Below are positions 1-55,325 of a stretch of DNA of 64,000 nt, one piece after another. The position numbers and the translations under genes are program-made. Source of the DNA: Chrysophaeum taylorii (taxonomy: Eukaryota; Sar; Pelagophyceae; Pelagomonadales; Pelagomonadaceae); contig JAQMWT010000005.1 in the NCBI GenBank assembly GCA_029834535.1, forward strand, positions 248,001-312,000, in the 5' to 3' direction. How positions within the stretch are numbered: the first letter of the stretch is position 1; every line of letters begins with the position of its first letter. The notes under the pieces were generated by a model that was given only the letters and a program-made list of their open reading frames with translations, made no database searches and had not been told where the DNA came from.

Positions 1-3000
1 CCGTAACGCGTCGAGCTGCCGCGCCTTACCCGGGTCCGCCTCAAGCGGGCTCGCAAAGTCCTTGAAGACCAATGCCCATTCGTAGCCGTGAGCCCAGCCG
101 AAGGCCGTGGCGCCCTCGACCTCAACGGAGAATTTACCGGAAATCTTCACCGTCGCCAACGCAACCGAGACAACAGTATATTCAATGCCACCCACCCAGA
201 ATGGTGCTTCTGGGGTCAAACTGGCCCGAAGGTCGGCGGTGGTCACGGCAGTGACCGTCGCTAAAAACACCGGTGTGTCGGGGATACCACCGTCAACATC
301 CACGTGGAGCTGCTTGTTTAGTAGGAGGCAATCAGCGCCACAGTCGAGTGGGCCGATGTCCTCGATCATGTATTCGTAACCGCCAACAAATATGACAGAG
401 CCATTAACGACAGTGGTTGCGTTGAGCAACTCTACCTCGCCCTCGCGCAGGTACACGATGCGCGAGTAGTCGAGCCCGTTGTTAGCAGCGGCACCCGGGG
501 TTGCAGTCTCGATGCGTGCTGCCGCAGTCCACGAAACGCGTCCGGGGAGTGCGGCAGTCGAACGCGTTGTCTCGCCGACATGCGCTACGAACTTGCCAAA
601 CGGCGAAGCCACCGCAGCAAGGTCCCCACTGCGGAAGGGTGATGAAAGACGAAGGACAGTGACACCACTTGATGTGTCAGCTCCTTGAAGAGTATATTCC
701 AATTCATCGTAAAGCGTCTGGTTCATCTCGGATACTCGCCCAAAGTACTCGACGTGCGTGAGACGGCGCGTTGGCCGTGAAGTGGATTTAGTAGTGTTGC
801 CAAGGCGTAGCAGGTCGCCCGTCGCGACGGCCGTGCTGAGATCGCCCAGTGCTACCACAGCATATGCTGTGCCGTTTGGCACGTAAACGCGTTCCGTGAG
901 CATATCGTCGGGAGCGCCAAGAAGCGAGACGCGGCCGATTGCGTTCAGCTTATGAAGAGCCTCGAGAACCTTGCCATGAGTTGCGCGCCACGAGAGTGGT
1001 GTTGTGACCTCGTCGCCAATGTGAAGCTCAAAGTCGCCGCGGAGGTCGTCCAGGAGAGCTGAACTGCTGACATTGACCAGAGAATAAACACTAGCGGTCG
1101 CGTCGCCACCGGTAAGGTGGCGAAACGAGACTCCGAGAAGGTCATGCTGGCCAAGGTGTCCGTCGAACGTCACTGCCCAAGCCGTTCCATGAGATTGGTC
1201 CTGGTGGTCATACTTGGTCACGCTCACAGTCTCTACACCCTCAACCGCCTTAAGCAGGGACTCGAGCTCCTCGGCACTCACGTTTACACTGACCCCACTC
1301 ACCGTTTGGCCATACAAATGGAGATCGAAGGTGCCACCCACCTCAGACGTGCCCTCGATAACGACGACTTGCACCTCAGGATAACCGCCATCGCACGGCT
1401 GGTGCTCAGCCACCAGGAGGACGGTTGCGGTCACGTTGTCAGGATTGCGAGTGGAGCCCGTCGTGGCGAGGTCCCAGTCATCGCAGCCTGTCCACGACTT
1501 TCCAAAGCTCGCGGGATCGACACGCAGTTGCGGCCACCGACCCTCGAGGTATCCCCCACGGAATACGATTCGGTATTCATAAGGGAAGCCCGTGCGATTA
1601 AGCGCCTCATAGGTTGCGACCTCAACTGAGTTGACGTATGGTAGCGACTCGAGAGCAGCCTTGAGCGAAGTCGCATTCGCGTCGTATGCGACACATGGCG
1701 TGAGGTGACCATCTAATTCCAGTCGGAACGAGCCGCCCACCGCAAAAGAACGAGCGGCGCCCGTCCCGGCCGCTGTGTCGAGCGTCAGATACTGGATCGA
1801 GTTGATGCGGTCGAGGATGCCGACATAAATGGCGCCGCAGCGGCTACGCGGCGCATCGACGCCAGCGTCTGCACGCCACGTCGCGTCGGCCGCCTCGAGT
1901 GCATCTTGTTTTGCGTAAAAGACGATGCTGCCGTAATCGCTGGGTTCGACGCCATCGCTTTCGTTTGCCGTGCTAGTCGAGATCGTTCCGTTGAGACTAA
2001 TACTCTGGAGCTCGGTCGTGTCAACGAAAAGCGCGTGCGCATCGCCGACGTCTTGAGTCAACCTCACGCGATAGGCCACCGTCTTTGACACAGCAGTAGT
2101 GTACCCAGCGGCGACCTTGACGCGCCCCAAGTTCGGTAGGAGATTCATCGCAGTCTCGATGTCGACTGCCGTCGCGTTGGGCTCGAGTGGCGCCGTCTTG
2201 AACGATCCCACGCCAATAGTCCAGCGGCCCTGGAGATCGTCGAGCCCTGCCGTGTTTGACAACTCGACTCGCCACTCCTCGGACCTCCGGTCGAAGTCAC
2301 CCTCGGTTGTCCACTCCAGTAAGTACGCGTCAATCGCCACTCTCGCTGCATCTGGCGGTGCAAAGCTAAATGCTAATTGCGACGAGGAGGCAGGCGTTAA
2401 CGCGAGGCTCGACGGCGCCACTGGCGTTGCCGCTGCAAAAAGCGAAAACGGCAAGACACCTGCGCCCTGGCCCTGCGCGAGCGGGAGAGTGCTCTTGGAT
2501 CCGCGCAGGCTCGTCGCCTCGTTGGTAAAGGGTCCGGTGCCCTCGGCAGAGATGCCGCGGACGCGTGCTGCGTAGCGCTGGCCCTCGATGAGGGGGGAGG
2601 CGGTCGCCGTCAACGTCGCGTCGACTCCCGACGCCAGCTTCGAAACGGTGAGTGCAATATCCGTCCCAGAGAGCCCGACGGCCGACACTGTCAACAATGG
2701 TAGAGCGCCGAGCTGCGACACAAAGGTCACGGTCCAATCGGCACCGTAGTAGTTCTCTTGTACAATGCTCTTGGTCACCGTCACGCTGCCAATGCTTGAG
2801 AGACTCTCCAGTTGCGACCGAAGGTCGTCGGCCGTCGCGTCGTACTCTATGACCAGGGATGACGCAGAACGGAACAGTGTTCCCGTTGTAGCGACGGTGT
2901 CCCGGAAGGATATGAAGAAGGTGCCATCAATATTGTCCTCGGTCGCCCTTAGCGAAATCCGCTGGACTTCCGATACACCTCCCGACACCGAAGCTTGAAA

Positions 3001-6000
3001 GCCGGGCATCTCGAACGAGGCAGATTGGCCCGCGCGTGTTACCTGAGCCGTCGCAAAGCACGAATGGTTCGTCGCATTTGCGAGCCAATTCCTCGTCGTA
3101 AAGGATGATGAGAGAAGAGGCGCGACGACGGCATAGTCTGGAGTTTTGACAACACATCCCACGGCGGCAGCGCCGCCAAACCGTGTCCCATTTGACGGCT
3201 CGTAAGCCGCCGTCGGTGCCGCCACGCCGAGGACAATATCGTCGTCACCAACGAGTTGCCAGGCCACACGGTTGTACTCGAGTGCGAAGGGCGTGCCAAT
3301 GAGCGCGAAGCGCGCTCTGCCGCCGACGACAGTGGTTTCGTCCACGTAGTCGCCAGTCAGGCCGGTATCGGTGCAGCCCTCGAGCGTGACAATTCGCGGC
3401 GAGGTCGCGCGCGCTTCCAGACACGGGGAGTTGGGGCAAGATGTCGCGCCATTAAGATCGACCAGTGTGATGGACCACACAAATCCTAATTGCGCGCTCG
3501 GGCCAAACCGGCTCACCTCAACGGCGCCAAGCCCAGGTAAACTCTCAAGTGCCGCCTTCATTTCGGCGGCAGACGCGTCGAACGGAACCTGCGTCGTCGC
3601 TCGCCGGTAAAGCGTTGCGTTGCCCTCGTCGCCATATCCGCTCGTCACGAAATCCACTTCGCTTGCGCGGTGCGAAAGAACGCGCTCATCATAGTCCAGA
3701 CGCGCGCTCCACTGGGCGCGTGGCTGGTCTGACCGGCCAAGCCAGGTCGTCTCGACGTAGAGCACGCAGTTCTCGCAGCCGGCAAGATGGTAATCGCTGA
3801 GAGGGAAGGCTGTCGCCGTAAAGAGCATGTCATCGTCGAGGTCGACGTAGTGGAGCTCGTCGCCAATGCGGACAGCGTCGCCGCGATTCAAGAGCCCCGT
3901 CAAATTTGCGTTGAGCGTCGATACGACGGCGCTGCCCGCAGCAACAGTGACATTGGCGATCGCATCGAGCTCTGGAACGAACAATGCGAGTCTTGTGTCC
4001 CCGGTGTAGTCCCAGCCAATTTCAAAGACGCCGTCGAGAATCCCGCCATCGGTGGAGCCAGTACTTACCGTCACGACCTCAGGCACATGACCTGCGAGCC
4101 CCACGACTACTTCCGACTGCACGTTGATCGCGACAACCGCAGAGGCGTAGCTGCACGCGCTCTGGGTTGTCGGAATTGCAACGAGCGGGTCGACAATGCC
4201 ATTCGACTCGTAGTCGCCATCGAAAACCACAGCGTACTCGCGCCGCATCGAAGTGGCTTTCTCGAGCGTGACAGCGACACCGTCAATGCCCTGGACCTCT
4301 TCGAGACGCAGTTCAAGCGTCTCGGCCGGAGCATCGAGACGGAGACAAGCGGTCGTTGAGTTTGCGTAGGCGAGCTGATACCGCCCGGCGCCGACTTCGT
4401 CGAACTCGGCGTCGCTACTGAGCGCGATCAAGATCCGCTGGACCGCAGGCGTCCGCGTGGCGACCTCGAATTCGTACGTGGATACAGGTGCACCGTTGTT
4501 TCCTTCGGGGTACGCTGACTGACGTGGTGGCCGCCAGTCGAGGCGGAGCTGCGAGCCTGCCGCACCTGGTGTGAGCTTTGCAATTTCCACGACGTCCGGG
4601 GCATCGGCAGCGCGCGCTGTCGCGCGGCGCATTGTCCATGGGCCCTGAAGGTATGTATCGCCATCAGAAAATGTGCTTGGCTCAGTGCGGGCGGCGACGC
4701 GGAAAAAGTACTGGATGCCGGATTTCAAGTCGGTCACCTCGTACGAGTACACTGCGCCAATTGTCACACCGGAAAAGACATGAACGACTGGCGACGAAGC
4801 GTTCACCGTGGGGCCAACGTAGGCTGTTTCGAGCTCGACACACATCACCACCGAGCCACATTTCAAAGCACCACCAAACTGGACATAGGCAAAATACATG
4901 GGCTTATTGATCGTCTTGACAGTGTACACCTCGTCCCCGGCATTGATAACGTCGCCAGCCTCGACGAACGCCGACACCGGCAACGCGATATGCTTTCGGA
5001 TGGACGCGTCCTCGTGGTCGGGCAAGGCATACGAAACCTTGGCAACCGTGTTGTCTGCCCGCGCCTCTGAGACTACGGTCGAGCTAAGCGGTCCGACATC
5101 GGTGCATGCAAAGCCGCCGTTGCGGACACACTGGCTCTTGAAGCTCGGGACAGTGTCCCACTCGATCACATAGTCAACGACGTCCGAGCCGCCGTCGCTC
5201 ACAGGTGGGTCCCAGCTGACCAGAATCTCGTGGTTGCCGGCGCGTGCTGCGGTGATATGCAGCGGCTCTCGGGGTGCCAGGACGGCCGGTCGAAGACGTG
5301 CGAGTAGCGGAGCGACGCTTGCCTCACCAAGGCCGATCGATGAGTACGCCGACACTCGGACGTAGTACGCTTCAGCGTGCGTGACACCCTCAGACACGAT
5401 GATCGAGTACGGGAGCCGGCCCACCACTTCCTGTGGCAGGCCCTTGACGTCCTCGGTCGCATACCGGATTGCAGTTCGAGATGCCGACCAGATCTCGATC
5501 GGTGGGAGGTCGCCACGTGCCGACACAAACTCTACGGTCACGTTCTGGCCGTCGCACGGTAGCCATGTTACATTGACGCCGTTGTATTGAACCGTCTCCT
5601 CACAGTCTACACAGCTCAAGGTGATGTCACCCACAATCGCTTCGATGGCTTCCTCGAGCGACAGCTCCTCGTCGTCGGCGCCGATACCACCGCGGGTGAG
5701 CGGCAAGCCGTACGTCGCTGAGAGCGATGCCTGGAAAGTTTCGAAGATCTCGCTCGGCGTCTTCCGTCGCATTTGCTTCGTCTGTTCGCCGATGATGGCG
5801 AGCTGGAACGCGCTGTCTGGGGCTTCGGCACAATAAAATGTCTGAACTTCTTGCTTGCTCCCTGTGGTTGCGAGGACTGATGACACATTTGTCGAAAATC
5901 GAATGCACGGCGTCTCGAACTCGCCGTCTTTGCAGCTCAACAAGTGGGTACCGTCGACAGAGAGCTTATGAGCGCCGACGGTTTGGTATGCCGATTGGAA

Positions 6001-21000: not shown

Positions 21001-24000
21001 ACGGAGCGCATTGAGGCGGTCCTCGAGTTCCTGAGGCGTCGCGTCGAAGGGGATGGGCAAAGTCGTGTCCAAGACTACGCTGCCGGAGAAGTCGAGCGCC
21101 TCGAGCGATAACGTGAAATTCCCCGAGAGGTGACGGCCCGTACCGACGGTCGTCACCACTTGCTGGACCTCGTTAATTTTCGGGATTTTGACATGAAGCT
21201 TATAGACGCCACGGACAAGCGGCGTGTATTTGACAATGTGGCGCGCCGTGTCGCCGCCCGCGACACCACGGTACACGGGGACTTTGTCAGCATCAGTGCC
21301 TCGGAACACATCCGTCAGAGGAACAGTCCGGTTGGTCGCTCCAGAAACTAATTCAAACTTGCCGTCGTCTGCTAGGGTGAACACTTCGGGCGAGCCCAAT
21401 CCAACAGCCAACATGTCACCACGCAGAAGGTCATAAAAACCCACGCCACTGACGTTAAACAGCGCGGACTTGTTGAAGTAGACCGAGGCCGTGCCGATGT
21501 ACTCCCAAGCTATGGGCGCCTGAGATACGTTTGTCACGACGATCGAGGCGTTGCCGATGTAGTCGTTCGTCCTGCCCTCACCAGCCCAGTCGGACTCGCC
21601 AACGAACGAGACATCGAACATGTCGGCCCCAGAGTTGAACCGGAAATTGCCGTCACCGTCCGTCGCCGTTACGACAAACTCGCATTCAGTCATAGCTACG
21701 CACGCGGTGAGCCCACCTCCAACGGCGCTTGTGGTACGCGAGTCGATGCTGTTCGGGTACACGTAGACGGACTCCTTCGACAGCATGATGTGGCGCGTGT
21801 AGAAAAGCGCCGATGCGGGAACGATCGCGGGCTTCTTATCGCCGTACGCCCACGACAACGAGAAGCGCGCGGCGTCGATCTCCTCGATGTACTCGAGGAC
21901 GATTGGGTAGAGTCGGCCAGCCTCGAGAGTAGCGTTTGCGTTGAGAATGTCAGAGTCTGCCCCCCCAAGAGCATCGATGAGGACGACACCATCGATCATC
22001 ATGCGCGCACCACCATCCGTCTCGATGCTGAAGATCACGACGCCGGACGTGGGCGAAAGCACATCACCGACCCACCGCGTGGAAAAGTAGTCGGCGGGAA
22101 AGTTGTCCCACTCAACCGCGTCTAGCGGGGGGCTAGTTCCCCAGTCAAAGGCCAGTGGGCCGTCAAGTCGCGTCGAGTCGCACACTGTCAATGACTCGGG
22201 TACGCACCACTTGGGCTCGTGGAAAGGCCAACGTCGCCATTCAGTGGCGCCGAGCGATGGCTCCGTGAAGTCACGGCGCGCATAGTACGTCGCAAGGAGG
22301 CCGCCAGGTTGTCGCAGCAGGATAGAAAGTTCGTGTGGACCGGCAAGGCTTGGTACATAACGGACCTCGTAGAGGCCTTCGGTGTTTGGTACGTGGAGGT
22401 CGTCGACGGTCCCATCGACAATGCTTCGGTCCGTTTCACGACCTCCCGCTGATGACCCAGTTCCGTTGAGAAAGGCGAAAAAAGTGCCTACGTCGACCTG
22501 ACGACCAAGACGGTTTCCAAATCGATCCCGCGCCTGCACTTTAAATGACGACTCGGCTCCCGCAATGGCTCGCATGGATGCAGTGTGGTGAGAGTGTGGC
22601 GCCGAAGCCATTGCTGGCGAGACGACGAGGCCTGCCGAGAGTTCGGTCGCCACCGCCGATGTCGAGTTATCGCCGCCAGCGCTCGTCGAACCAATCGAAA
22701 GTGACCACGTGTAATTGCCGTCCATCGTCGGCGTGTAGACGAGCAGGTAGTGGCCCGCTCCGACGTAGCTCAGAGTGTCGATGCCTTTAGTGACCTCAGC
22801 GACCTCGACGTGGATGTCGACCTCGTTGCTAATCTCAAGTGTCGGCTGTGTGCCGAAGAGCGATATGAAGTCAACGTAGATCCACTCGCAGCCCACAACG
22901 CGGTCAGCGTTGCAGCAGATGGAACCCTGGCCACTCGAGTCGCGGACGGTTACCTCATCGATGCTGGGGAGGGACTCGAGTGCGATCTTAAGGTTCGAAG
23001 GTGCAGAAGACCCCGTCAAATTTGACGCCATCTCCCAGAGTCCGGTCTTATTGTTCAGCATTGACACTGAGAAGGTGCCGTTGAGGCCTGAGCACCGCAG
23101 TTTCTGAGTTTCGTACATCCCGACCGAGACGTCGTCGAGCTGAAGGTGATTGACACTCAGCTCGATGACCTCACCACCCTTGGAAGAGGTAAGAAGGTTG
23201 CCCGTGGTTCCCTTGACAGCCTCCGACACCTCGATGCGCGGAGCGACCTGGCGTTCGTACGGCGAAAGACGGTAATCGAGGCCCGAGTCGTCAACGATGA
23301 GCGCCTCGACGTCGCCCAGCGCGTCCGGACAAAAGCTCCAGCCGCGCGTCGCACATCGACCATTGAAGCTGATTTGCCACACGGAAAGCCTGGAAGTGTT
23401 GGGGAAAATTTGTTCAGAGGAGGCTCCCAGGCACTGGCCGACCTTTGTGGCGATGACGGTCACGTCGCCAACGCTCGGGAGGTGTTCCAGAGCGGCCTCG
23501 ACTTCAGCGGCCGACGCATCGGCGCGGATCATTGCGGTTGTGTTGCCTGCATACGTCAGCGTGAATACGCCCCACACTGGATGAACGCCGTCGACCGCTC
23601 CATACGCAGACGTTTGGTACTGGGTAATGGCCGAAGTCGACGACGCATTGAAGTCGAGCAAAGGTAGATCACCCGTCGCTTCGAGGAACTCGACGTAAAC
23701 ACGATGTGTCGCGTTAAATTCCGAACCACACAAGGCCGCGCTCACCTCGTCGGGCTCGTCGCGCCTAAACACGCTCACCGGTGTGATGGCCGAGAGCTCT
23801 TGTTCGAAGTCGCCGACGGTGGCCGTCGCAGCGCTCAGACTCGAGGTCGTCTCACCACGGAACTTTGCGGCGACAGTGCCACTTGTTGCCGAGCAACTAA
23901 AGGTCTGAACTTCGCGCACGTATGGTGCGTCGCCCTTGACAGTCTCTGCAACATCGACGCTCGAGTCCGACGCCACAAGCAGTGGCACATCGCCGTAGAC

Positions 24001-27000
24001 TTTAGTGAATGTCACCATGAACGCCTCGGATGCCGCAATAGTTTCGTCTCCGTCATAGTCTATGACGTTTACCTCCGAACGAATGGTTGCAAGCGCCTGG
24101 AGGGAGCTTCGAAGTGTCGAAATGTCTGTGATTCCCGGAGTCACCGCGGCGGTCTTCTCACCGCGAAACTCGAGCTGGAAGTCGCTCATCCCCGCGGTCA
24201 CAGTCTGAACTTCCGCGGTGATCCGGACCTCCTCGGCGATAACCGACACAATTTGTGTCTCGACCGCCCGAGCGTCCCGAGCAGAGATATCCAAGATCAC
24301 TGGCTCGCCAGCGACGACTTCAGTGAGCTGCTCCGAGGTAACCGTGGTTGACCGCGAACTCACGATGCCATGGGTTACCGTCACCTCGAAAGGCGATCCC
24401 TCGATGTGCCGGTTATCAGATGTGATGCTCAGCTCGTACTCGCCATCATACCAAAGCGTATACTGCACCGGGTAGATCCCACCGCCTGCGGGACGGGTAA
24501 TATTCACTTCTGACAGTGCGTTGATGTTGTTGTCCGGCGGCGCCTTGACGACGAGGGAGGCTTCGGCCCATGCTCGTAAATTACTTAAGAACGTGACCGT
24601 GTACTCGTGGTCGTATCCCACCTCGACTGCTTCCTTCCGCGTTACGCTCACATCAAAAGTAATCTCTGCGTGTGCATGCTCGAGGGCCGACTCGACGGCG
24701 GCGGCCGTTGCGTTGAGCGGGATGCCTATACAACAAGAGATGCTCATGAAAACGTCACAAGGACCAACTCCCTCAACAGAGAATCAGAAGAGACAGACAA
24801 GCAGGAACGCACTTAGCGTGGTTGCGCCTGCGAAACTGAGCCGGAAGCTACCGGTCAAACTCGCGTCGCGAATCTTGATAGTCTCTATCGCAGTCGACGT
24901 CGTCACAGAATAGTCGCGTGTCGCGTGCTCGAAGACAATCAAAAAGTAGTCGGACGCGCCAGCTTTATCTTTTTCGCCGCCGTAGTAGCCATACTTGAAA
25001 TGTGGGGTGTCTTCGCCCGACCGCAGGTTGCCAAAGGCGTCATTGGCCAGAACGTCGAAGGTCCTGGGGATGCCAACTGTGGCAGTGGATATGCCCGAAC
25101 CCAAGGCCTGCGAGGCAGGCGCATGAAGCGGTCCATGGACCACTTGGAGCGTCGGGGCGTCGTGGTCGCAGAACTGAGGTGCTTTGTACACATCGAGACC
25201 ATCATACTCTCGGACCCACCAGAACGGCGCCGTCGGGCCGACACACGTAAGGAGCGAGTCGTCATTGTGCTTGACGAGCACGTCGTAGTTGCCAGCCAGC
25301 GGGATCGTATAGGTGGCGAGATAGCTGCCGTTGTTGTAGTCGTGAACGTGAGCGCGGTACTGAACGTCCGTGTTGTCTTGGTTCGCGAAAAGCACGTCGA
25401 ATATGTCGCCGCCCTCGCGAAGATTGTTGCTGTACGCATCTTTGGCAGCGATGGCGAAGGCGCCGGTGTCCCCGGCCGCTGCCTCAACGAGTGAGTCCAT
25501 GCCAGGCGCTGGCGCCGACTCGACCTCTGATGTTGCTGCTGTGGCGGCGCCCGGTTCGACGTCCAGGGAAAATGGCGAGCACTTCAGGAGGTCACCGAGG
25601 CCACATTGAATGTCTGTGCCGCCAGTGCGGACGAAGATCAAGTAGTCGCCGGCCTTGAGAGGCGTGTAAGAAACATCGTACTCGCCGTTTCCAAGATATA
25701 CGATGTGTCCAGCAAGGCGCGTCGGGCCGAGGACCTCAACTGCGAGCTTGTCACTGAAGTCGTCTTCCTCGGCCTCTGTGATTCGCGTATTGTTGTTGGC
25801 GTCCTTGGAGACGATACGAAATTTCGCGAGGACGCCGGCGGTCGCGTGGTTGAGCGCGTCGCCGTTGGCCACTGTATACGGGTAGTCCGCGCGACCGGGC
25901 AACACGACCACGTCGCGGAATGGCGACATGGCAATGTGCTCTGCGTGAAATAGATTCAAAGAGGGCACAGGCTGACGCGCTATAGAGAAGCACGACCACT
26001 CGAGTACGATGGAGGCCAGGCCCGTGATCTCCTTGTACTCGACCACGAGGTCGTGGTACGCACCTGCTTCAAGCAGTTTGGAGTGCCGATGGCCCTTGAC
26101 AATGTCGACATCCCACTCGTCGATGATAAGTTCATGGTCAAGATAGATGCGAACGCCGTCGTCTGCACGCGCGTAAAACGTGTACAACTCGTCGTATTCA
26201 GCAAGGACCTTGCCGCTCCAACGGATCGAGACGTAGTCACGGCCATACTGCGTGATCGTGCCAACACCCCAGTCAAAGTTGATGGCGGCGTCGATGCGTT
26301 CGACCGTCGGGTCGCCCTGGAGCCACTGGTTGTCAAAGTAACTCGCGGCAAGACCGCCGGGGACTAGCTGGCGCACAAAAACGTCGTATGTTCCTGTCGC
26401 ATTCGGCACGTAGCGGCCAGTGTACGACGGCAACCCGGCGACCTTCTCGAAGGTGTCCACCGCGGGCGTACTGCCGGTGAGCGAAGCGTCGTCGCCAGCA
26501 ACGATCTCCGAGATTGTGACACTGGCGTCGGTACCGGTGAGCCGATCAGTGTTCACAGTCATGAGTTCGAGGTCACCAAGCTCGGACCGGAAGGTCACGC
26601 TCCACGTTGCGCAGTTGTTGTCAAGTTCCACCTTGTCGACGTCGACCCGCTCGACGGTCGGGAGCGACATGAGAGCATTCTGCATCGCCGCCGCAGTGGC
26701 ATCAAACGCGATGTCCGTCGTCGAGACGCTGCCGTATGCCAATACGAAGGAACCGCCCAGTGGCGTTGGGTCACCACCCGTAGTCGTGACTTCCTGAACC
26801 TCGTACGAGTACGGTGAAGCCTGCATTGTCCGCAGGTTGCCAAGCTGCTTAGTGAAAGTGACAGTGTACCGGATCGAAGCCCCGAGGACCTCTTTCATCA
26901 CGTCAACCTCGTCGACGGTCGGCAAGTTTTCGAGGGCCTCCTTGACGTCCTTCGCGCTTGCCTGAAAGCTAATGTCGTCGGAGTAAGCGTCTTCATATGC

Positions 27001-30000
27001 CATGGTATAGGTCCCCCCCAATCCGCTGACTCCCTTGACGGTTTCGACAACGTTCGTAGTGCCGAGACCCTCTCCCGATGAATCCAGGACCTGCAAGTTC
27101 GCAACGTCGCCCACGGGAGAGTGGAATGTCACATCCCAGCTTGGGCCTGATGACCCCAAATTACCGTCGGTCACCGTGACATCCTCAATGTCGTCGAGCA
27201 TTTCTAGAGCCTCCTCTATTTCTTCCGCCGTTGCTGATACCAAGAGAGAGTTGGTCGTGTCCGTGGCATAACCGAGCCGGAGCTTGAAGAGGCCATCTGT
27301 CGTGCTCATCACGTTGATTGACTGTTCGTCTTCCACGAACTCAGTGTCGCAGCTGAGGACGATGGTCTGGATCTCTGTCACGCCTTGTTGTAAACGCGTG
27401 ACGTAGGCAAGCGGAGTGTCCACAAGCAAGAGCGGCCGCTGGCCAAGATCATGAGTAAAGGTGACATCGTAGGTGAATCCATCAGACTTCGAGCCTGATC
27501 GGCTCACATCGACGGCCTCAACGCTATCCAGATCCTCGAGCGCAATCTTTACCTTATATGCCGATGCACCGGCCGAGATCGGCGACGTGGTGTCGCTGAC
27601 ACCATCGACACGATTCGTCTCGTTTAAAGTCAGCTGGAAATCCCCGTTGAGGCTGGAGTCAGTCACGAGGCGCTGAATCTCGTAAATTGCCGCATTGTAG
27701 GGGGCGACGCCTCCATCGTTGTACCAGACGTGCTCTCCTGAGTCGCTGTCGATGCGCCAAAGCTCGGTGAAAAACACATCGAGGCCTGCTCTTTTCTTTG
27801 CTGCTGTCAGGTCGCGGAGAGGCGCGCCCGAGGCCTTCTTCGGTTCGATCGTGAACTCATTGGCGCACCCCTTGAGGAATTCGGTTGCGTTCGTGCCGTC
27901 GGCGTCGACAGCACTTCCATTCAATTGAAGCAACGCCACGTCTCCAATCAGCTCGACGAAGGTAATGGTATATGACGCAATTGAATGCCCCGAATATGAC
28001 GTGTTCTGGCGCGTTACGTGGACCTTACCGATTTTCTCGAGGGCCTCGAGGGCCTCTTCCCAGGTCTCGACGTCATCCTCAGCGTCGAGGGGTATGGACC
28101 ACGAGGATGTTCCCGGCATACGCAGCGAGACATCGCCGCTGCCCATCTCGACGTTGACGATTTGCTGTTCGTAAATGACGCCGGCCATTCCGACCTCTAG
28201 TGACCCCCCGCTTGCCGTCGTCTGCGACGCCGCCGCGCCCCCCCGCGCGATTACAGTGACGGACGCTCGTGAAAGGACGCCTTCGCCAACGAGGTTGATT
28301 GGGGCCACTTTGAACGCGTAGGGCGCATCGGGTGTGAGGCCGGTCGCCTTGAAATTATAGACATCGGGCATGTTAGAGCCATCGTAGACGAGCAGCGCGG
28401 CCGTACCTGGCAGAACGGTCTCGACGTAAGCTTCTGGCATATTGGCATCGTAACTCAACCGCCCCGCTGTCGCAACCATGAGCGGAAGATCACCTGCCTC
28501 TGAATCGAAAGTAACCAACCACTCGCGTGATCCCCACGCCGTTGTCGTGTTGGCCATCACAGTAACGATCGAAATCGTGTCGAGGTCCTCGAGTGCGAGC
28601 TTAACGTCGTCTGCACTTCCGTCGCTCGCAATCGGCGTGGTTTCGGCTCCGCGAAACCTTAGAGTGAACGTTCCACTGAGCTCAGTCGTTCCAGCCAGAA
28701 TCCGCGACACGCTAACATTCGAGTCCCTCGAGTCGTCGATGGCCTCCAGATTGCTTTCGTCAACAGCAACGAGGTCGAGGCCGATGTAGTTGACGAATGT
28801 GATCGTTTTATTTGCCGAGCTTGAGTCCACTTTGGCCCTCGACGCGCACGCACGAGGTGCAACCTAATGCTGACTGGATGGCTGCTGCCCACACGTTGTT
28901 GTTTGCACCCGGTTTGAGGCTGACGGTCCAGTTACCATCAACTTTGAGCCGCACCGTCGAGGCGTCGGAGTCGACGTTAGCGAAAAGAAGGCGCTGCTGT
29001 TCGTCTGTCGGGACTTTGGAGGTGACAACGACGCGCTGGACCTCCTGTTTAACAGGATCCGGGTCGGCGACCGTGTTGAGTGCCACACCTGGGTACATGT
29101 ACAATTTGTAGCCCACAATCGCAGAACCGCCGGTCGAGTTGAGCGCAGGCGCCTGCCATTTAACGTGGATGGACGTCTCGCCGACGTCGATCGTCTTCGG
29201 GCGGTACCACGCATAGGTGTGGTTTAACGTCGCATCGCGGCCTGGCACAGTCGCAGCAAGCGTCGACATCAAAGGCGACTTGGCCGAGCGGCCCTTGGAA
29301 TTGACGGCTTGAACATAGAAACGGTACATCTCGCCCTCGTCAAGCCCCTCAACGACGTGGCGCATCAGGAGGGAACGTCCGGGCAGCCTGTCGAACAGCG
29401 GTCCCGTGAGCTGCACTTTTTGAAACTCGCGGCCTGGCTGAGCCATCCAAAGTTGGTATTCGGTGATGTTCGCGCCGCCATTGTCGTCAGGAGCGTTCCA
29501 GCGCACGTCGATTGAGGCATCGCCCGGCAAGACGCTACCGATGCCGCTCGCCGAGCCGCCATAGGGCGCGCGTGGCGGCAGCGGGGTTCGCGGTGCGCGG
29601 ACAGTGAACACAGCGTGTGGTGAGAAGGCACCATAGCAGAGTAGATCGGTGTCCCTAGCCGAGCAAAAGTTGACAGCGCGCACTGTAAACCGGTACTGAC
29701 GGCCTGACTCGACGCCGATCGACGTGCTCGTGCGGATGGTGAACTCGGTCGTGTCGGGTTGGTCGCTGCCGTCAAAAACCATCCGCGGATTGCCACCACT
29801 CCAGTCGTCCATCCACAGCTCGTAACCCATCACCGGTGAGCCGCCGTCGACAGTCGGACGATCCCACTCGACGGAGATGCTTGTCGCCGTCGAGCTCACG
29901 AGCCGCACGGGCGGGCATGCCCCAGGTGCGTTGTACGACGGAATCTCGTATTCAGGCTGGGTCAAACTGTACGGACCAAAGCCTTCATTGTTGTGGAATC

Positions 30001-33000
30001 GGACACGTGCGTATGTGCGCTCGCCCGTCGCAATGTCGACAATGTCGTGCGCGTACAAATCATTGCCTGTGATGTCGAGCTTCGTTATGGGCTTGTGAGC
30101 TTGGCACGTGCCGCCCTCCTCAATATTGTCGTCGCAGTCATTGCTAGGGCCGACTCCCTTTTCAACCTCGGTAATCGTGACATTCGGCTTCGAACCGCCT
30201 CCCGTCAGAGTCGAGTTTTCTGTTACCCAGATGAGAGGAGCCACATCGCCGTTGTTGCAGACGTCGTTTCCGCCGTCAGCGACGCCGCAGCCTCCAAACG
30301 TTACATACCAAGTGTACCCGTCAAAGTTGGTAACACGCGAGACAGCGATATCTCCAACAGAGTCAAGCGCTTCGAGCAACACCTCGAACTCGGCAGCCAA
30401 GAGGTCGCTCTCGATGGCATCCGTTGTAGCGCAGGTTGCATGGGCATAGGAACTGTTGCAAAATTGAAGCTGAAAGGATCCCTTCAGCGGGTCTGAACCC
30501 TGCTGGATTGTGGTTGCCAGAACTACCGCACCAAGACCGGTGAGCTCGCTGGCATCGCCATAGAGAAGGTCAACGTTTCGCGATTCCGGCGGGAAATAGC
30601 CCGGGTTTGCGACGAAACTGATCTTCCAAGAGTACTCACGTCTCGGGCCCGGGGCAGACCGCGTCACGTCGACCACGCCAATATTTGGCATGCCCTCAAG
30701 CCTTGCTTTCATAGTCGACGCGGCCGCGTTATACTCGATCGGATCAGTCGTGTGGCCGCGGAGGGTCAACGTGAATGTACCGCCAAGCTGGTTGCCGGCG
30801 TTGCTCCCCGTGGTAGCTCCGCGGCGATTACCGCTTGACTCCTCGCCATCGGCGTATATCTTCAGAGCGGCACCAGTTCCGGTAAGCTTGTTGTCGTACG
30901 ACTTGAATGAGAGCGACTCAACATCGCCGCCGACACCCGACCCGACGAAGGTCACTGCCCATAGATTCTCAGTGAGATTGTACGGATTCATCATTGTCGC
31001 CGACAACTTGCTGACCACTACGCCCCCAGCTTGGATTGTGTCGAGAGCTACGAGTTCGGTCTCGATGTCAGAGGCGGATGCCAAGGGAGTGAGTTCGTTG
31101 GTGGTAGCGCCTCGAAACGTGAGCCGAAATGTGCCGCCCAAACCCCAATCACCGTCCTCCTCGGTGATCGTCACGCGCCGTAATCCATCGAGATTGTTTG
31201 TATTTGGGACGAGCTCGGGTACATCACCTTTGTAACCATCGACAGAAGAAAATGTGATGTTTGCGCCAGCCGTGGCCGAGCTCCCAGCGTCCGTGTACGA
31301 GGCACGTGACGAGCCACCATCGACACAAACAGTCGAGACATCGTTGTCCATCAGGAGACCAACACCGAAAAACACAACGTTGACCGAATTTACGTTTGTC
31401 AACTCCTCGAGGGCCGCCTTGAGAGTGCTGGCCGACGCATCATAGTCGATAGAGCGCGTCGTCAAACCGTCGAATGTAAGGGTGAACGAGCCACCAGTCG
31501 CGTCACATTCCAGAATCTGGTATTCGTACGCCTGACGGCCGGCGTAGTCGTCGGCCAGTTTTGCATGGATCAGCTGGACCTCGTTTACATCCGTGACGTT
31601 CGTGTACACCTCCTGGATCTCCATGCTGGTGTTGACCGAAATGCGGACAGCTTGGATTTCATCGGCAAAGGCCTCATCGGCATACTCAACTTTGTATGCG
31701 TCGAGGGACTCGCCGCCATCGCTAAGTGGCGATTGGAACCGCACGCGCAGGCTTGTGGCCCCAAGTACCGTCAATGAGACATTTGTCGGAGACGAGGGTT
31801 GCTTCGGTACAGGCGCTTCGTATGGGGGAGAAGGTACGCCGGCAGGACCCTGGCCAATGGCGTTCACGGCGATGATCCTGAAGTAGTATGGTATGTTGCG
31901 TTCAAGGCCGGTCACGTGGAGCCGGAGATCAGCCAAGTCGGTTATGGCGGCTGATCCCAGCGGCAAACCGTTTGCTTCGTCCAGGGAGTCGAAAGGCGGG
32001 AAAACGCCCTGTGTTACCAAGTACGAGGTCGCTGTGACTGCAGTGCCGCTTAAGTCCAGGTCGTCGGTAATCAGCATTGGGACATCTCCGAGCTCAGTAA
32101 GGAAAGTTATCGACCACGTCGCGCCCCCGTTCTCCTGAAATGACATGCGTATCACAACAAAGCACAAAACCGAACGCTCACATCCAAGCCAGTCCGTGTA
32201 ACAGCAACGTTGCCGATCGTGGAGAGAGATTCGAGAGCCCTTTCCACTTCGTATGCCGACGAGTCTGATATGAGATAACCCGTGCGCTGGCCTCGGAATT
32301 CGAGGGTGTAGTCGCCGGAAACAGCTGTCGATGTGCTGTTGATGAGTCTGGACACCATGACCGTGACGTTCTCGTCCGCGTAAGATGTCGTGCCGCTGAG
32401 GTCCCATGTATTATTCGTGACTTTGAGCAGCGGCACGGTACCGGCGTTGGTGTCGAACGTGATGCGGTAGAGGCATACCTGGCTCGGCGCCCCTTCATCA
32501 ACATTTGAGACGGTGACGCGACCTATTGTCGTCAACGCTTCGAGTTCAGTCTCGATGATGTCCGCGTCGCCATTGACAAGCGTGGTCACGGTAAGAGTAT
32601 CGTCTCCAATCGATGCTGAAGAAGACGGCCCGTCCTCAGCCCCAGCGGCATCGTAGCTCGCGGCGACGGTGAGTGGGTCGAGGTTCCCACTTTCGGAAAT
32701 GAAGGTTATGTCCCAATCACACTCCTCGGAGGCAATAGTCGAAGAAGAAGAGACGCGGACCTGGTAAATCGTCGAGAAGGCCTCGAGCTCCTCTTTGATT
32801 GCTGAGGCCACCGGCGTGCAATCACCGATGCTGGGGTTGGCGTAGATGTAGTCGGTCACTGCATCGCCGAACGTCAGACGGAACGTCGTGCGTGGGGAGA
32901 CGGTGGCATCGCCACCCTCAGACGTCATGTCGTTTGTAGTCGAAGAGAGACGCTGCACCTCCCAAGTTTCTTTGGCGCACGCGCCGTTGTAGTTTGGACC

Positions 33001-34892
33001 TGCCCTGATCGCACCAGTGGTCGCGCCTCGGAAATTCAGATGAAATACGGCTGGCGATGGCGAAGTTGATGTGACGTTCAACAGCTGCACCTCCTTGATG
33101 GTACCTTTTCGTAGCTCAGTAACAGTCACGTCTGCGCCTTCGCCATACAAAAAATCTGTCGAAGCCAACGAGATTAGCTGAACATCCCCTATAAGTGCCG
33201 CTCACATTGAACAGGACTCGGCGGAACACGAACCTTCGAATGTGCGATTTATGTCGTCGAGGAAGCTGACGGTCCACGTGTAGCCCCGTTCGAAGTCAGG
33301 ACCACTCCGCGAAACGGCAACAGTACCCGCGGGAATCTCGTCCAAACTCTCAAGGCTCGAGATCATGTCCGCTGCCGAGGCGTCGTAGGCAACACGAGCG
33401 CTCGTCGTGCCATTAGCAAACGAAATGTTGAACGAGCCCGAGAGCTCGTTGCCGTCGGTTGCGTTGACCGTGATGTAAGGGTCCGCGCTTTTTCCGACAA
33501 GAGTCTCATCGTAGATAGCCTCGATGAGCGGGATGTCGCCGCCGTTGTCGTCGTGCGTGAACGTGACGAGCCATGTGTATCCTCCAAAGGCCTGTGGATA
33601 TCGGCGCTCAACAACGACGTCTGTCACCGAGTCGAGGGCCTCGAGCGCTTTCTCGACCTGTGCCGCCGTCGCGTCGGAAGGGATCGACGCCGTCGTGTCG
33701 CCCATGAAAGTAAGTCGGAACGTGCCTGCGAGAAGACATGGACGTGAGAAAACTCGACTCTCGCGCACCCGAAATGACGTTGCCCTCGACCAACGTGGCG
33801 AGAGTGACAGTCGAGCCGAGCGTCAGCCCGGACGCGTCGAGAAGCTGGAGTTGGGGCACGTCGCTCAGTGTGGCCGCGAACGTCACCGTCCACATGTACC
33901 CGACGTGGCCGTCGAACTCGACATCGACTCGCGTCACGTTATCGATGCCGCCCGATCCGACGTTTTGCAGCGCCTCGAGGATGGTCGATACCGACAATCG
34001 TCCGCAGCACGCATCCGCGTCCGCGGAAATGGCGCCCGAATACTGGAGCGAGCCTCCAGTACTGCGCGTATCAAGCGCCAATGAGAAAGTCCCAGCGAGG
34101 GTCCCGCCCACTGGAGCTGTGGCTGTGACAGTTTGGACTTCTCTCACCGCGCTTGCCTTGGTCGAAATTTCTTGAACCTCATCGATATCATCAGCTGTCG
34201 TTTGAATGGTTTGGAGTTCGTTCGCCCCAATGTAAGTGCTCGTTGTTATACCTGCACAAAAGAGGATGCGAGTTGATGCGGGACGCGCAGTTTCACGCGC
34301 TTGAACCACGCTCGCAGGCAGCGCGAGATTACAAGACACAACGACAGTACCGCGCGTTCGCGTTTCGTATTCAAATACATCGGTGGGCTTCTATGGCTAC
34401 AGCTTCATGAAGCAATTTTGCGCTGGTGTATGCTCTGGACTTCGGCGACGCCAGGATTCGTGTCCCACTCGACCTGTATCGCGGCGCAGTGTGTGGCTGG
34501 TTGGGTACGGTGGCACGAGGCGCCGGAAATGTGCTTGGTATGACTGAACCACGGCGCCCCCGTCCGTTGCCGGGGGATTCCAACTTATCTCGAGCGCATC
34601 TCCCGAGACAACCTGATGCCAAAAACGCAGATCATCGTCGAGCAACACAGGTACAGCGAGAGAGGGCCACTTTTACAAGCGCAAAGAGCACTTTGACGAC
34701 AACACCTTTCGCGCGAATGCGAAGCCCGATCAAGCCATGGAGGTTGCCCATCCATGGAAACCCCAATCGCGAACGTACCTCGAGGATTGCATCTGTTGGT
34801 GCTCCAGGTGCGCGCAAATCACCAGCGCATCGAAGCGGCATCGCGATGAGCGCTGCCGCCCAGACGCCGACCCCGTTGCGGCGTGCGCGCAT
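1..34892 (-). CDS. Giant secreted multidomain repeat protein (Fn3, PA14, filamin-type Ig), 3' end outside window
   Basis: The gene starts at ATG 34892 with an N-terminal signal peptide, so the product should enter the secretory pathway. Joining the exons gives about 11,443 codons down to base 1, where the frame is still open. Exon phases agree at every junction if one base is dropped near 28831. The N-terminal arm (28.8-34.9 kb) mixes fibronectin III repeats with a ~75-residue repeat. The core (17.9-26.4 kb) has three PA14 domains set among filamin-type Ig repeats. The C-terminal arm (1-17.8 kb) returns to Fn3 plus ~75-residue repeats. N-x-S/T sites are abundant. No catalytic motif is seen, and no membrane anchor is visible because the C-terminus lies outside. 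PA14 and Fn3 modules commonly mediate carbohydrate or protein contacts, so a cell-surface, matrix or adhesion scaffold is inferred. The 5' end could instead extend into the signal-peptide gene at 37832. Confidence 0.9.
17885..18340 (-). other. PA14 domain 3 of the giant protein
   Basis: It runs from GGLVGEYYNNRW through VSARWTGYV, FTFHVQCNDGARLFVD and ITLEWRE to LVPASRLFHH. An Fn3 domain follows at once (TTPLDVQLER and DELVLSWVTP), marking the switch from the PA14/filamin core to the C-terminal arm. Confidence 0.85.
21785..22310 (-). other. PA14 domain 2 of the giant protein
   Basis: It runs from GGLLATYYAR through FSTRWVGDV, FSIETDGGARMMIDG and IVLEYIEE to ALFYTRHI. It is about 175 residues, slightly longer than the other two because of a Cys-bearing insertion near the start. 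The filamin-type repeat before it reads FKVQARDRFGN and ends GPHELSILLRQ. Confidence 0.85.
24726..24812 (-). other. Intron 8 (last visible) of the giant gene, 87 nt
   Basis: Donor ctaa|gtgcgt and acceptor ttgttgtatag|GC, phase 1. It removes an in-frame TGA at 24784 and joins FAGATTL to IPLNATAAAVESAL, an exact repeat continuation. Confidence 0.85.
24940..25905 (-). other. Filamin-type Ig repeats after PA14 domain 1
   Basis: At least two repeats are seen. Key strings are FRIVSKDANNN, GNGEYDVSYTPLKAGDY, FAIAAKDAYSNN, NGSYLATYTIPLAGNYDV and FDVLANDAFGN. This is the filamin/ABP280 pattern of a 'DxxGN' strand followed by 'G.Y.v.YtP..aG.y'. Similar strands flank the other two PA14 domains. Confidence 0.75.
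25930..26362 (-). other. PA14 domain 1 of the giant protein
   Basis: The stretch opens with GGLAASYFDNQW, has the typical middle (VSIRWSGKV, YTFYARADDGVRIYLD, LVVEYKE) and ends with a Trp and Phe-His cap. These are hallmarks of the PA14 beta-barrel of bacterial toxins, glycosidases and adhesins. A filamin-type strand (GTYDVFVRQL) precedes it directly. Confidence 0.85.
32135..32181 (-). other. Intron 7 of the giant gene, 47 nt
   Basis: Donor ggat|gtgagc and acceptor tcatttcag|GAG, phase 0. It joins TRTGLD to ENGGATWSITF, a standard repeat core. Confidence 0.85.
33189..33233 (-). other. Intron 6 of the giant gene, 45 nt
   Basis: Donor gaag|gttcgt and acceptor cacttatag|GG, phase 1. It removes an in-frame TGA and joins RTFEG to DVQLISL, the usual end of the repeat. 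Confidence 0.75.
33726..33768 (-). other. Intron 5 of the giant gene, 43 nt
   Basis: Donor tcgg|gtgcgc and acceptor cttctcgcag|GC, phase 1. It restores GTFRLTF, the opening of the ~75-residue repeat. Confidence 0.75.
34252..34332 (-). other. Intron 4 of the giant gene, 81 nt
   Basis: Donor tctt|gtaatc and acceptor cttttgtgcag|GT, phase 1. It joins TVVVSC to ITTSTYIGANEL. The length is a multiple of three, so the unspliced frame also stays open. Confidence 0.6.
34391..34440 (-). other. Intron 3 of the giant gene, 50 nt
   Basis: Donor gaa|gtccag is weak; acceptor is gccatag|AAG, phase 0. It joins NPGVAE to KPTDVFEYETR and removes an in-frame stop. Confidence 0.5.
34474..34516 (-). other. Intron 2 of the giant gene, 43 nt (donor uncertain)
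   Basis: A GT-AG choice (ctc|gtgcca to atacag|gtcgag) gives a 43-nt intron, in the size class of its neighbours. A GC-AG choice with the donor at 34534 (tac caa|gcacat) gives 61 nt and a cleaner Fn3 join, SYQ to VEWDTNPG. Both are phase 0. Confidence 0.45.
34613..34778 (-). other. Intron 1 of the giant gene, 166 nt
   Basis: Donor GAG|gtacgt and acceptor gcatcag|GTT, phase 0. Splicing joins DAILE to VVSGDALEISW, restoring an Fn3 A/B-strand. Confidence 0.6.
34779..34892 (-). other. First coding exon with signal peptide of the giant gene
   Basis: This exon encodes 38 residues: a basic start (MRARRN), a hydrophobic core (VGVWAAALIAMPL) and RCAG as a likely cleavage region. The first Fn3 strand follows (PGAPTDAILE). 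It ends in a good donor, GAG|gtacgt. The ATG context is aagaATGcg. This is the best start seen, because the next exon continues the same Fn3 domain in phase (SGDALEISW and DGGAVVQSY). Confidence 0.7.
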
Positions 34893-35566
34893 TCTTAGCT
34901 CTTGTGGAACAACTCAATCCGCGAGGCGGCGGAGCTCTTGCACAAGATGCGCGCAATCCTGGCGACAACTGCTAAGACCAGCAACAGCGCGCTCGATCTC
35001 CTCGCGAAGGCACCATGTCCCTCGCAGCTCGTTAGCGCCCTATACGAAGACACTGGTTCAACTGCTCAAGTACCAACGGAAAGAAACACATAACGATTGT
35101 ACCGTTGAGAATCGTAAGGTTGCGAACACCGCAGCCTTTAAAACCCTGCGGCGCGAGGCTGCTCCCCTCTTCTCCTGCCCCACGGCTCGGCGATGACCCC
35201 GATTAAGTCGTGGGGCACATTCGCCTTCCAGGTTTCACCCACTTGGAACCTGTGTCCCTGACCTCTCCAGCTACTCACACCTCCTCGAGCCCCTGGCTTG
35301 ACTCACGGCATCCCGCCCTTTATAGCATCCGCCTAAAAAAAAACACCCTGAACGCTCGTGCTCCCGTCCGCGCCCCCCTCTTAGCAGTCGAGTTTTAGAA
35401 ACACTGTCGTGCCCCCTTCCCTCTTGTTTACTCCTCCTCCCCCCTTCTGAGGACCCACCTACAAAAAAACTGCCCTCCTACCAGGCTACCCTAAAATCGC
35501 CTTAGTAGTGGCCCTTACAACCCCCAAATCAGGGCCCTCATGTTCCCACACGACGCACCAAAACCC
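34893..35566. other. Gap upstream of the giant gene, C-rich with short repeats
   Basis: No convincing coding segment is seen on either strand. The plus strand from about 35200 is rich in C and CT runs. Copies of a TTAGCAGTCG-type repeat begin at 35381. A TTTTAAA box lies about 250 bp upstream of ATG 34892 on the minus strand; whether it is a promoter element is not known. Confidence 0.5.
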
Positions 35567-35704
35567 TCAAGCCCCCACGCGCGCCCCCCTTCTTAGCAGC
35601 CGACCTTCAAAAGCCCCCAGTGCAGCCTCCACGTCTATGCCCCCAACGCACCCCGCCTCTCTCCCTCCCTTGAAGCAGTCGCCCTTCAAAAAACCCCAAA
35701 TCAG
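35381..35704 (+). repeat. Degenerate short repeat, four copies
   Basis: Copies start at 35381 (ttagcagtcgagtttta), 35502 (ttagtagtggcccttac), 35593 (ttagcagccgaccttc) and 35672 (gaagcagtcgcccttc). They share an approximate core TTAGCAGTCGcCCTTCaaa, and two continue into CCCCAAATCAG. A fifth copy is at 44151. Confidence 0.55.
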
Positions 35705-41726: not shown

Positions 41727-42228
41727 AGAAGGAGCACAACAACCCTAATAACTCCACTCCCTAGAACTTTTTTCCGCGTTGGGAATTCACTTCAGCAAGT
41801 GAACGTGGACCACTTCACCCGCCACACGATCTCGACGGCTGGTCTGTGCTGCAGATGGCGTCCGTCGTCGAACGTGCGCATGGTGTGTTCGAGCGACTTA
41901 TAGCACCAAGCCAGCAGTGGTTGCCACGGCGAATTTCGAGGCCTTTGACAGGTCGATCAAGCAGTACGACACATTCCTGAATGCCCGGGCCAACTCAACT
42001 CGCAAGTCAGTGGACGGGACCTTGATGCTACCCTAGTGTTGCATCGCTGCGCGAACCTGGGTGGCCAGCAACTGTTGTGGATGAGAGAGAAAAGAGAGAG
42101 AGAGCTTCTTTAATCTTTAAAGCGGTACGTAACGGGATCAATTAAAGGTTAACGGCCTTGCTTTAATAAAATAACCTTGTCATAAGGATCAGCCTTAACC
42201 CTTGTGGTCGTTCCTTTGAATCTCAGAG
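41727..42228. other. Intergenic region with a possible coding relic
   Basis: Plus-strand bases 41800-42036 stay open for about 78 codons without an ATG. They read RRRTCAWCVRATYSTK and then ANFEAFDRSIKQYDTFLNAR, ending in TAG. The composition looks protein-like and the CxxC recalls a zinc ribbon, but no family is recognised. A GA-rich tract lies near 42090. The last ~100 bp are A/T rich and lead into the polymerase gene. Confidence 0.3.
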
Positions 42229-44210: not shown

Positions 44211-44253
44211 AACGGACATCATATATATCAGGAAGAAGATGATGATGTCCGTT
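44211..44253 (+). promoter_or_regulatory. Perfect 12-bp inverted repeat upstream of CFAP58
   Basis: AACGGACATCAT (44211-44222) and ATGATGTCCGTT (44242-44253) are exact reverse complements separated by 19 bases. The hairpin ends 43 bp before ATG 44297, so it could form in the 5' UTR or be a protein-binding palindrome. No function is known. Confidence 0.5.
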
Positions 44254-44296
44254 GTCGTTGGTGGTCCATTGTAGCGGGTGCGTGCACGCGGTCCCC

Positions 44297-55294: not shown

Positions 55295-55325
<31 letters not shown>

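What the first reader, a model, noticed from the sequence alone, without database searches (positions are those of the whole stretch)
1..34892. Titin-scale secreted protein, at least ~11,440 residues, in a protist-type genome
Seen: a signal peptide at 34892, eight short introns with consistent phases, and a frame still open at base 1. The content is repeat modules of extracellular type with no catalytic motif. Inference: one of the largest predicted surface proteins in such organisms, possibly a cell covering, adhesion or self/non-self scaffold.
Basis: partly seen in the sequence, partly recalled or inferred. Interest (0 to 1): 0.88.

Follow-up and report, generated by a model that had tools for sequence, protein, structure and literature searches.

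The report
Giant secreted thread of stramenopile swimmers
One gene of an alga-like protist encodes a secreted protein of about 17,600 amino acids, whose building block also occurs in relatives of the proteins that form the tiny hairs on the swimming tail of such organisms, which makes it a candidate thread of those hairs or of the swimmer's sticky coat.

Summary
Confirmed and extended. The frame open at window base 1 runs on to a stop at C5:229311: 14,490 codons in one stop-free frame. With eight short introns the model is 17,635 aa (1.88 MDa, pI 4.5): leader-like start, no evident membrane anchor, about 75 copies of an 89-aa module that has no Pfam family, about 40 fn3, three PA14 and filamin repeats. 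It is no oddity: collinear relatives from diatoms, brown algae, a bolidophyte, Aureococcus and oomycetes cover 99.9% of it. In oomycetes and diatoms the proteins seen cover either an A or a B part; here both form one chain. The module is the domain of actinophage tail proteins (Bxb1 gp23) and also sits between EGF blocks of this genome's homologues of the solved tubular mastigoneme proteins (PDB 9ufe). Best reading: an unanchored secreted thread of the flagellate stage, most likely in or on flagellar hairs, possibly their terminal filament (inferred). Chief rival: zoospore or cyst adhesive matrix; in a published table the Saprolegnia B gene is nearly silent in mycelium and highest in cysts.

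The parts
1..34892 (-). window part of the giant gene (11,406 of 17,635 residues of the model); continues leftward to the stop at G000:C5:229311 (18,690 bases left of the window)
   Evidence: open frame; spliced model; collinear relatives
34821..34892 (-). signal-peptide-like N-terminus MRARRNGVGVWAAALIAMPLRCAG (extent judged by eye; no trained predictor)
34613..34778 (-). intron 1 (GT-AG, phase 0)
34474..34534 (-). intron 2 (GC-AG, phase 0; placed by hand on the VEWDT fn3 motif of relatives)
34252..34421 (-). intron 3 (GC-AG, phase 1; donor placed by hand, uncertain by a few codons)
33726..33768 (-). intron 4 (43 nt, phase 1)
33189..33233 (-). intron 5 (45 nt, phase 1)
32135..32181 (-). intron 6 (47 nt, phase 0)
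28838..28892 (-). intron 7 (55 nt, phase 2; least certain)
24726..24812 (-). intron 8 (87 nt, phase 1)
1..24725 (-). window part of the last exon, 43,415 nt in all (to C5:229311)
13984..14253 (-). typical copy of the 89-aa module (modelled with AlphaFold2); 75 matches in the protein
25972..26355 (-). PA14 domain 1
21841..22227 (-). PA14 domain 2 (position from an HMM trained on the other two; Pfam also counts two PA14 stretches in this 5,000-residue piece)
17932..18336 (-). PA14 domain 3
   Evidence: solved PA14 relatives 6qe7, 6qdi
25606..25878 (-). filamin/ABP280 repeat (best of two stretches that Pfam counts in this piece)
20446..20760 (-). filamin/ABP280 repeat (best of three stretches that Pfam counts in this piece)
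13138..13410 (-). one of about 40 fn3 domains
4560..4650 (-). approximate A/B border: relatives in oomycetes start a separate protein (B) here

Best explanation
The gene encodes a secreted, unanchored, thread-like structural protein of the flagellate (swimming) stage of stramenopiles. Shown: leader-like start, no evident anchor, 17,635 aa in the model, a chain of about 75 small modules (core: strands, one helix, two strands) plus fn3, PA14 and filamin domains, its order conserved across the group; the same module lies between the EGF blocks of this genome's mastigoneme-type proteins. Inferred: it folds in the ER into a string of some 185 domains, roughly 0.6 to 0.8 micrometre if extended, is N-glycosylated, and is carried out together with the mastigonemes, in or on whose hairs it acts as a mechanical thread, binding the EGF/module proteins of the hair through like modules and carbohydrate through PA14. 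The A and B proteins of oomycetes and diatoms would be two parts of one such thread system that this alga, and probably some other ochrophytes, keep in one chain.
For: A module HMM built from this protein alone finds modules in 5 of 7 distinct mastigoneme-type EGF genes fetched from the same genome at E 6e-30 to 4e-6 (Z set to 20,000) and in a sixth, L007, at 0.011; L008 none; reversed sequences 0 of 74 ORFs; the copies follow a NEVQ-like linker as in the giant. Two of these proteins were compared with the PDB, and both match all six chain types of the solved tubular mastigoneme 9ufe. The module segment of 9ufe chains BA and EA aligns to the module profile A2 with hhalign probability 96.7%, against a maximum of 19% in 150 column shuffles; with this genome's copy added, 96.3% against A1. 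Collinear relatives cover 99.9% of the protein (75 of 83 fetched used). N-glycosylation sequons 187 against 109 (s.d. 9) in shuffles and 97 for the reverse motif. The genome has radial spoke 3, IFT46 and a CFAP58-like gene 9 kb from the start. Saprolegnia B gene SPRG_03974: mycelium 0.03, sporulating mycelium 6.66, cysts 16.44, germinated cysts 8.30 (PMC5771568, passages).
Against: The module is not confined to hair-type proteins: 23 matches lie in a 10,362-codon frame on C11 and 4 in a 4,561-codon frame on C5, and 45 in the relative P0067. The three pieces searched singly against the PDB match no 9ufe chain at E 0.1 or 0.001, so nothing shows it to be a modelled shaft subunit. The passages seen of the P. 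parasitica flagellar membrane proteome (PMC12223298) and of the P. infestans flagellar gene study (PMC3471859) have no occurrence of fibronectin or titin in the main text; supplements were not seen. Expression of the Saprolegnia B gene peaks in cysts, and zoospores are not in that table. The 9ufe hits by plain profile search are sub-threshold (E 0.28 to 1.3), and profile A2 scores the copy in L006 no better than its reversed control (4.3 against 4.7 bits). The single-sequence model of that copy is too poor to use (pLDDT 42). No localisation or RNA for this organism.
Confidence: 0.42

Rival explanations
1. Adhesive extracellular matrix of zoospores, gametes and cysts: the protein is secreted when the swimmer settles and glues cells to surfaces or to each other by fn3, PA14 and filamin modules; the module shared with mastigoneme-type proteins is only a common stramenopile extracellular module.
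For: Saprolegnia B gene SPRG_03974 peaks in cysts, and its authors list it among possible components of the hooked hair bundles, while saying that their analysis is unlikely to suffice (PMC5771568, passages). fn3-type proteins are proposed for zoospore aggregation in P. parasitica (PMC7409359, passages). The module occurs in other large frames.
Against: The Saprolegnia gene is already about 200-fold above mycelium in sporulating mycelium (6.66 against 0.03). The order of the protein is held over its whole length across deep lineages, more like a built structure than a fast-changing glue (inference). The module is shared with the mastigoneme-type gene family.
Confidence: 0.33
2. Part of the theca or cell covering of the vegetative cell.
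For: Secreted, large, sequon-rich, acidic; pelagophytes have a perforated theca (PMC12168098, start of abstract in the listing).
Against: Relatives occur in oomycetes, diatoms and brown algae, whose coverings differ (recalled); the Saprolegnia gene is nearly silent in mycelium.
Confidence: 0.1
3. Several separate genes, or a frame that only looks like one protein.
For: The oomycete and diatom proteins seen cover A or B, not both; no RNA here.
Against: 14,490 codons without a stop while every other frame has hundreds; five relatives (P0047, P0048, P0071, P0072, P0078) run through the A/B border; a relative at 66% identity aligns in one piece over 4,707 columns.
Confidence: 0.07

Closest known systems
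Uncharacterised 'titin' / 'Fibronectin type III domain' proteins of oomycetes, mostly 7,340 to 7,530 aa where complete (e.g. Phytophthora infestans P0026, Albugo P0039), and Saprolegnia SPRG_03974 (P0080, 5,297 aa)
   Same: Collinear with the giant from about q9,850; P0026 and P0039 reach its C-terminus, P0080 stops aligning at q15,672; leader-like start in those measured
   Different: Only the B part; the A part is another protein where seen (Saprolegnia SPRG_04153 = P0065)
Diatom A proteins (Thalassiosira profunda P0003; P0054, labelled CCRYP, recalled as Cyclotella cryptica) and B proteins (Discostella P0014, Skeletonema P0079)
   Same: Collinear, 35 to 37% identity
   Different: A stops aligning at q6,422 (P0054) to q7,115 (P0003) and B starts near q11,550 to 11,580; the middle is in none of these proteins. 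A and B were seen in different named diatom species
Stramenopile tubular mastigoneme proteins (SIG1/OCM/MAS1; PDB 9ufe)
   Same: Share the module
   Different: Much smaller EGF-rich proteins with one or two modules per frame; the giant showed no EGF match in the pieces scanned
Mycobacteriophage Bxb1 tail-tip protein gp23 and capsid/tail domains (9d93, 9d9w), phage Patience (8giu)
   Different: Phage virion proteins with few copies; no other shared part seen
Animal titin
   Same: Order of size (titin's size recalled) and fn3 domains
   Different: Cytosolic muscle protein with I-set Ig and kinase domains (recalled); none found here

Membership tests
Stramenopile giant A/B family | collinear alignment over the whole length | tested here: met
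   75 of 83 fetched proteins used; 99.9% of residues covered by the set together, none alone covering all; 8 dropped before the count: P0015, P0081, P0082, P0083 (weak, fn3-type), P0067 and P0076 (not collinear), P0069 and P0070 (scattered pieces only)
Stramenopile giant A/B family | secreted: leader at the N-terminus, no anchor at the C-terminus | tested here: met
   hydropathy only, no trained predictor. Of 5 A and 14 B relatives picked by hand, 4 and 12 exceed the 95% level of internal windows; P0054, P0010 and P0017 do not
Mastigoneme proteins (SIG1/OCM/MAS1) | EGF-like, cysteine-rich repeats | tested here: not met
   no EGF family (seven pieces; about the first 406 residues not scanned); cysteine 0.9%. 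So it is not filed as a member of this family
Mastigoneme proteins (SIG1/OCM/MAS1) | carries the module seen in 9ufe chains BA/EA and in the genome's own family members | tested here: met
   weaker or failed by plain profile search
Mastigoneme proteins (SIG1/OCM/MAS1) | located in flagellar hairs | not testable with these tools
   needs proteomics or microscopy
Animal titin family | I-set Ig domains and a kinase domain (recalled) | tested here: not met
   none among Pfam matches; titin PDB hits are on fn3-type stretches
Actinophage virion decoration domain | module sequence profile and fold | tested here: met
   Foldseek itself ranks gp23 first but at E 0.6. tblastn of one relative's module finds 62 of 50,697 phage records, all Mycobacterium, Gordonia or Microbacterium phages
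FtsQ-type POTRA domain | Pfam PF08478 above its cut-off | tested here: not met
   best 22.2 bits against cut-off 23; 2 of 26 copies match weakly

The most novel reading that the evidence does not exclude
The A and B giants are the fine terminal filaments of the stramenopile flagellar hairs, for which no protein was named in anything seen here, their length being set by the number of domains: parts of 7,100 (A) and 7,750 aa (B) would be about 0.24 to 0.37 micrometre, assuming 95 aa and 3.2 to 4.5 nm per domain, close to the 0.3 to 0.4 micrometre terminal filaments measured by electron microscopy, with one or two filaments usual per hair (PMC9310263, passages). In this alga the two are fused into one longer thread.
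Probability: 0.16. Interest if true: 0.88.

Novelty: new variant of a known kind. Interest (0 to 1): 0.72.

Why it matters
Flagellar hairs define the stramenopiles, yet in the passages seen here only small EGF-type proteins are named for them. A conserved giant that shares their module, with a leader and no evident anchor, is a direct candidate for an unassigned part of that machine or for the glue of swimming cells, and both can be tested in laboratory algae. It also shows that one module family, without a Pfam entry, occurs in actinophage tails, stramenopile hair-type proteins and giant threads, and that one chain in one lineage is two in others, which predicts that A and B work together.

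Tried and rejected
POTRA kinship of the module: weak Pfam hits only. Titin kinship: fn3-type matches only. A viral source: one scan of viral contigs with a 1,200-aa exon found no relative. RNA families at gathering threshold and tRNAs: none in the window. The fold of the mastigoneme-type copy in L006 could not be checked: the model is too poor, so no fold search was run on it. A PDB search with the three mastigoneme-type copies (A4) did not bring up the phage proteins, so those copies are tied to the phage domain only through the giant's module. Literature (10 searches): nothing seen that describes this giant family beyond the Saprolegnia candidate list and the mention that PITG_01932 was left out of a prediction for excessive length in PMC12905231 (passage); no paper behind 9ufe was recognised in the listings, and only openly licensed papers are held.

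Family spread could not be completed: candidates in the three homologue searches were limited to about 14,456, 13,020 and 11,516 aa and to those sharing most words, so full-length orthologues would be unseen; no search of pennate diatom or downy mildew genomes was possible. Gene models at looser penalties had nine and fourteen introns; the extra ones inside stretches that are open and aligned to relatives were not taken.

Full report
THE OBSERVATION. The window lies at G000:C5:248001-312000 of an unnamed assembly of 70.8 Mb in 697 contigs, eukaryotic by its introns and genes, and nearest among named hits to Aureococcus (52% identity). Fetching the 50 kb to the left shows that the frame runs to C5:229314 and stops at 229311-229313: 14,490 codons without a stop. 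The three-frame view beyond the stop, cut in the middle of the output, shows no continuation of the fn3 array. The other five frames of the same stretch carry 241 to 580 stops.

GENE MODEL. A dynamic-programming model with codon scores gave six introns and, in a second version at three penalties, seven, nine and fourteen; the seven were kept as the base. The final model has no internal stop, 17,635 aa, 1.88 MDa, pI 4.46, and aligns with P0007 through seven of eight junctions. The last exon is 43,415 nt with the stop codon. Residue numbers q below are those of the 17,612-aa model, on which searches were run (add about 23 for the final model).

CONTENT. Pfam finds fn3 and related fn3-like families, PA14, filamin and, above its cut-off in one piece, the GEX2 N-terminal Ig-like domain; no enzyme family passes its cut-off except the fn3-like N-terminal domain of purple acid phosphatase, which overlaps fn3 stretches (seven pieces covering all but about the first 406 residues and one codon). 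NCBIfam adds only sub-threshold matches for the three pieces given. HMMs trained on the protein itself give 75 module matches, 73 above 15 bits and 59 covering over 70% of the 89-position model, 40 fn3, 3 PA14 and 2 filamin (Pfam counts five filamin stretches), together 61% of the length; the rest is unassigned. The 26 aligned copies share a median 28% identity (range 14 to 40), so this looks like an old repeat array, and the tandem repeat finder reports nothing inside the gene. Sequons are 187 against 109 expected. No 19-residue stretch looks like a firm membrane helix (highest mean hydropathy 1.83 at q12038).

RELATIVES. Three protein searches (15 hits of 579 scored candidates; 36 of 685; 41 of 824) gave 83 distinct proteins, many without a name. 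Named sources include Aureococcus, Thalassiosira, Discostella, Stephanodiscus, Skeletonema, Ectocarpus, Choristocarpus, Triparma, Saprolegnia, Aphanomyces, Phytophthora, Plasmopara, Pythium, Globisporangium, Lagenidium and Albugo. Names outside the stramenopiles are an Alexandrium label on P0060, which is 64% identical to the Thalassiosira protein (so perhaps diatom DNA, inference), and weak matches to a starfish (P0015), a bacterial MAG (P0082) and a wasp (P0083). Of the 83, 75 were used in a collinearity count; their chains together cover 99.9% of the giant at median depth 24. Off-diagonal matches are weak beside the diagonal (P0001: 137 to 171 bits against 6,267).

A AND B. Proteins of two kinds tile the giant. 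A starts with the N-terminus (q13 to q86 in seven or more) and stops aligning at q6,422 to q7,115 in the named diatom proteins P0054 and P0003; Saprolegnia A (P0065) reaches q7,670 and a partial Aphanomyces protein q9,677. B starts at q9,832 to 9,882 in the oomycete proteins with intact starts and q11,550 to 11,579 in the named diatoms Discostella and Skeletonema; 12 of 14 B proteins measured have a hydrophobic leader. Many B proteins share the C-terminus, q17,591 to 17,612. Both A and B were seen in one species only for Saprolegnia parasitica (P0065, P0080); in Phytophthora and its kin only B was seen. Five relatives run through q9,850, among them Triparma (P0071) and Choristocarpus (P0078). 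So a single chain may be ancestral in ochrophytes, or a fusion at their base; which came first was not tested by a tree.

THE MASTIGONEME LINK. The same profiles gave sub-threshold hits (E 0.28 to 1.3) to three chains of one PDB entry, 9ufe, named tubular mastigoneme protein, OCM5 and OCM6. Followed up: the 9ufe segments against module profile A2 give hhalign 96.7%, shuffles at most 19%, and against A1 95.9%. The genome encodes a 446-aa homologue of these chains and further EGF proteins (30 matches in all, itself included). In the eight loci fetched (seven distinct genes, L011 and L013 being taken as one), the HMM built only from the giant finds one or two modules per frame in five genes at E 6e-30 to 4e-6 with the database size set to 20,000, in L007 at 0.011, in L008 none, and in none of 74 reversed ORFs. 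L007, the weakest, is the one closest to the solved chains, and profile A2 does not separate it from its reverse. L010 matches all six 9ufe chain types, over its EGF part in the alignments shown. So the shared module is firm for this EGF family and good but not final for the solved chains.

FUNCTION. Homologues of SIG1 were shown to be mastigoneme proteins (PMC6678668, passage citing Honda 2007), and an Ectocarpus mas1 mutant lacks hairs and swims slowly (PMC13109109, passages). The genome has radial spoke 3 and IFT46 and, 9 kb from the gene's start, a CFAP58-like gene. The B gene of Saprolegnia parasitica (SPRG_03974 = P0080, 5,297 aa) is nearly off in mycelium and high in sporulating mycelium and cysts (PMC5771568); its authors point to adhesion and say that their analysis is unlikely to suffice. 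Both readings put the protein on the swimming or just-settled cell. A thread in or on the hairs is preferred because of the module shared with the hair gene family, the lack of an evident anchor, the conserved order, the early rise in sporulation and the list of taxa; the cyst peak and the module's presence in other giants speak for caution. The terminal filament idea rests only on length arithmetic and published dimensions.

NOVELTY. The kind, giant modular extracellular proteins, is known; databases call the relatives titin, fibronectin type III or hypothetical. In the papers found by ten searches (listed in Tried and rejected), most seen only as listings, no account of the family as such was met. 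New here: the single A+B chain of 17,635 aa with a 43-kb last exon, the module's link to mastigoneme-type proteins and phage tails, and the collinearity across stramenopiles.

Noticed in passing
window 44246-47071 (+): CFAP58-like coiled-coil protein (cilia and flagella associated), Pfam E 2.4e-72, some 9 kb from the start of the giant gene.
   Followed up: partly
window 42220-44049 (+): Y-family DNA polymerase (IMS domains; eta/Rev1-type HhH below its cut-off).
   Followed up: no
window 52508-55333 (+) and 60936-62579 (+): Patatin-like phospholipase and a family-10 fucosyltransferase.
   Followed up: no
G000:C11:64240-95325 (-), loci L016-L019: Second giant frame, 10,362 codons, with 23 matches of the same module and an N-terminus resembling IPT/TIG proteins (resemblance recalled).
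   Followed up: partly
G000:C5:321736-335418 (-), loci L020-L021: Third large frame, 4,561 codons, with four module matches, to the right of the window.
   Followed up: partly
L007-L014 and further places: Many EGF mastigoneme-type matches in this genome (30), six of the seven genes fetched with one or two giant-type modules per frame (one of them only at E 0.011); NEVQ-like linkers shared with the giant.
   Followed up: yes
window about 35200-35760: G-rich degenerate repeats just upstream of the giant gene's start on its strand, seen by eye.
   Followed up: no
protein P0067: A different 7,591-aa protein with 45 module matches and Pfam labels recalled as pentraxin and NHL types.
   Followed up: no
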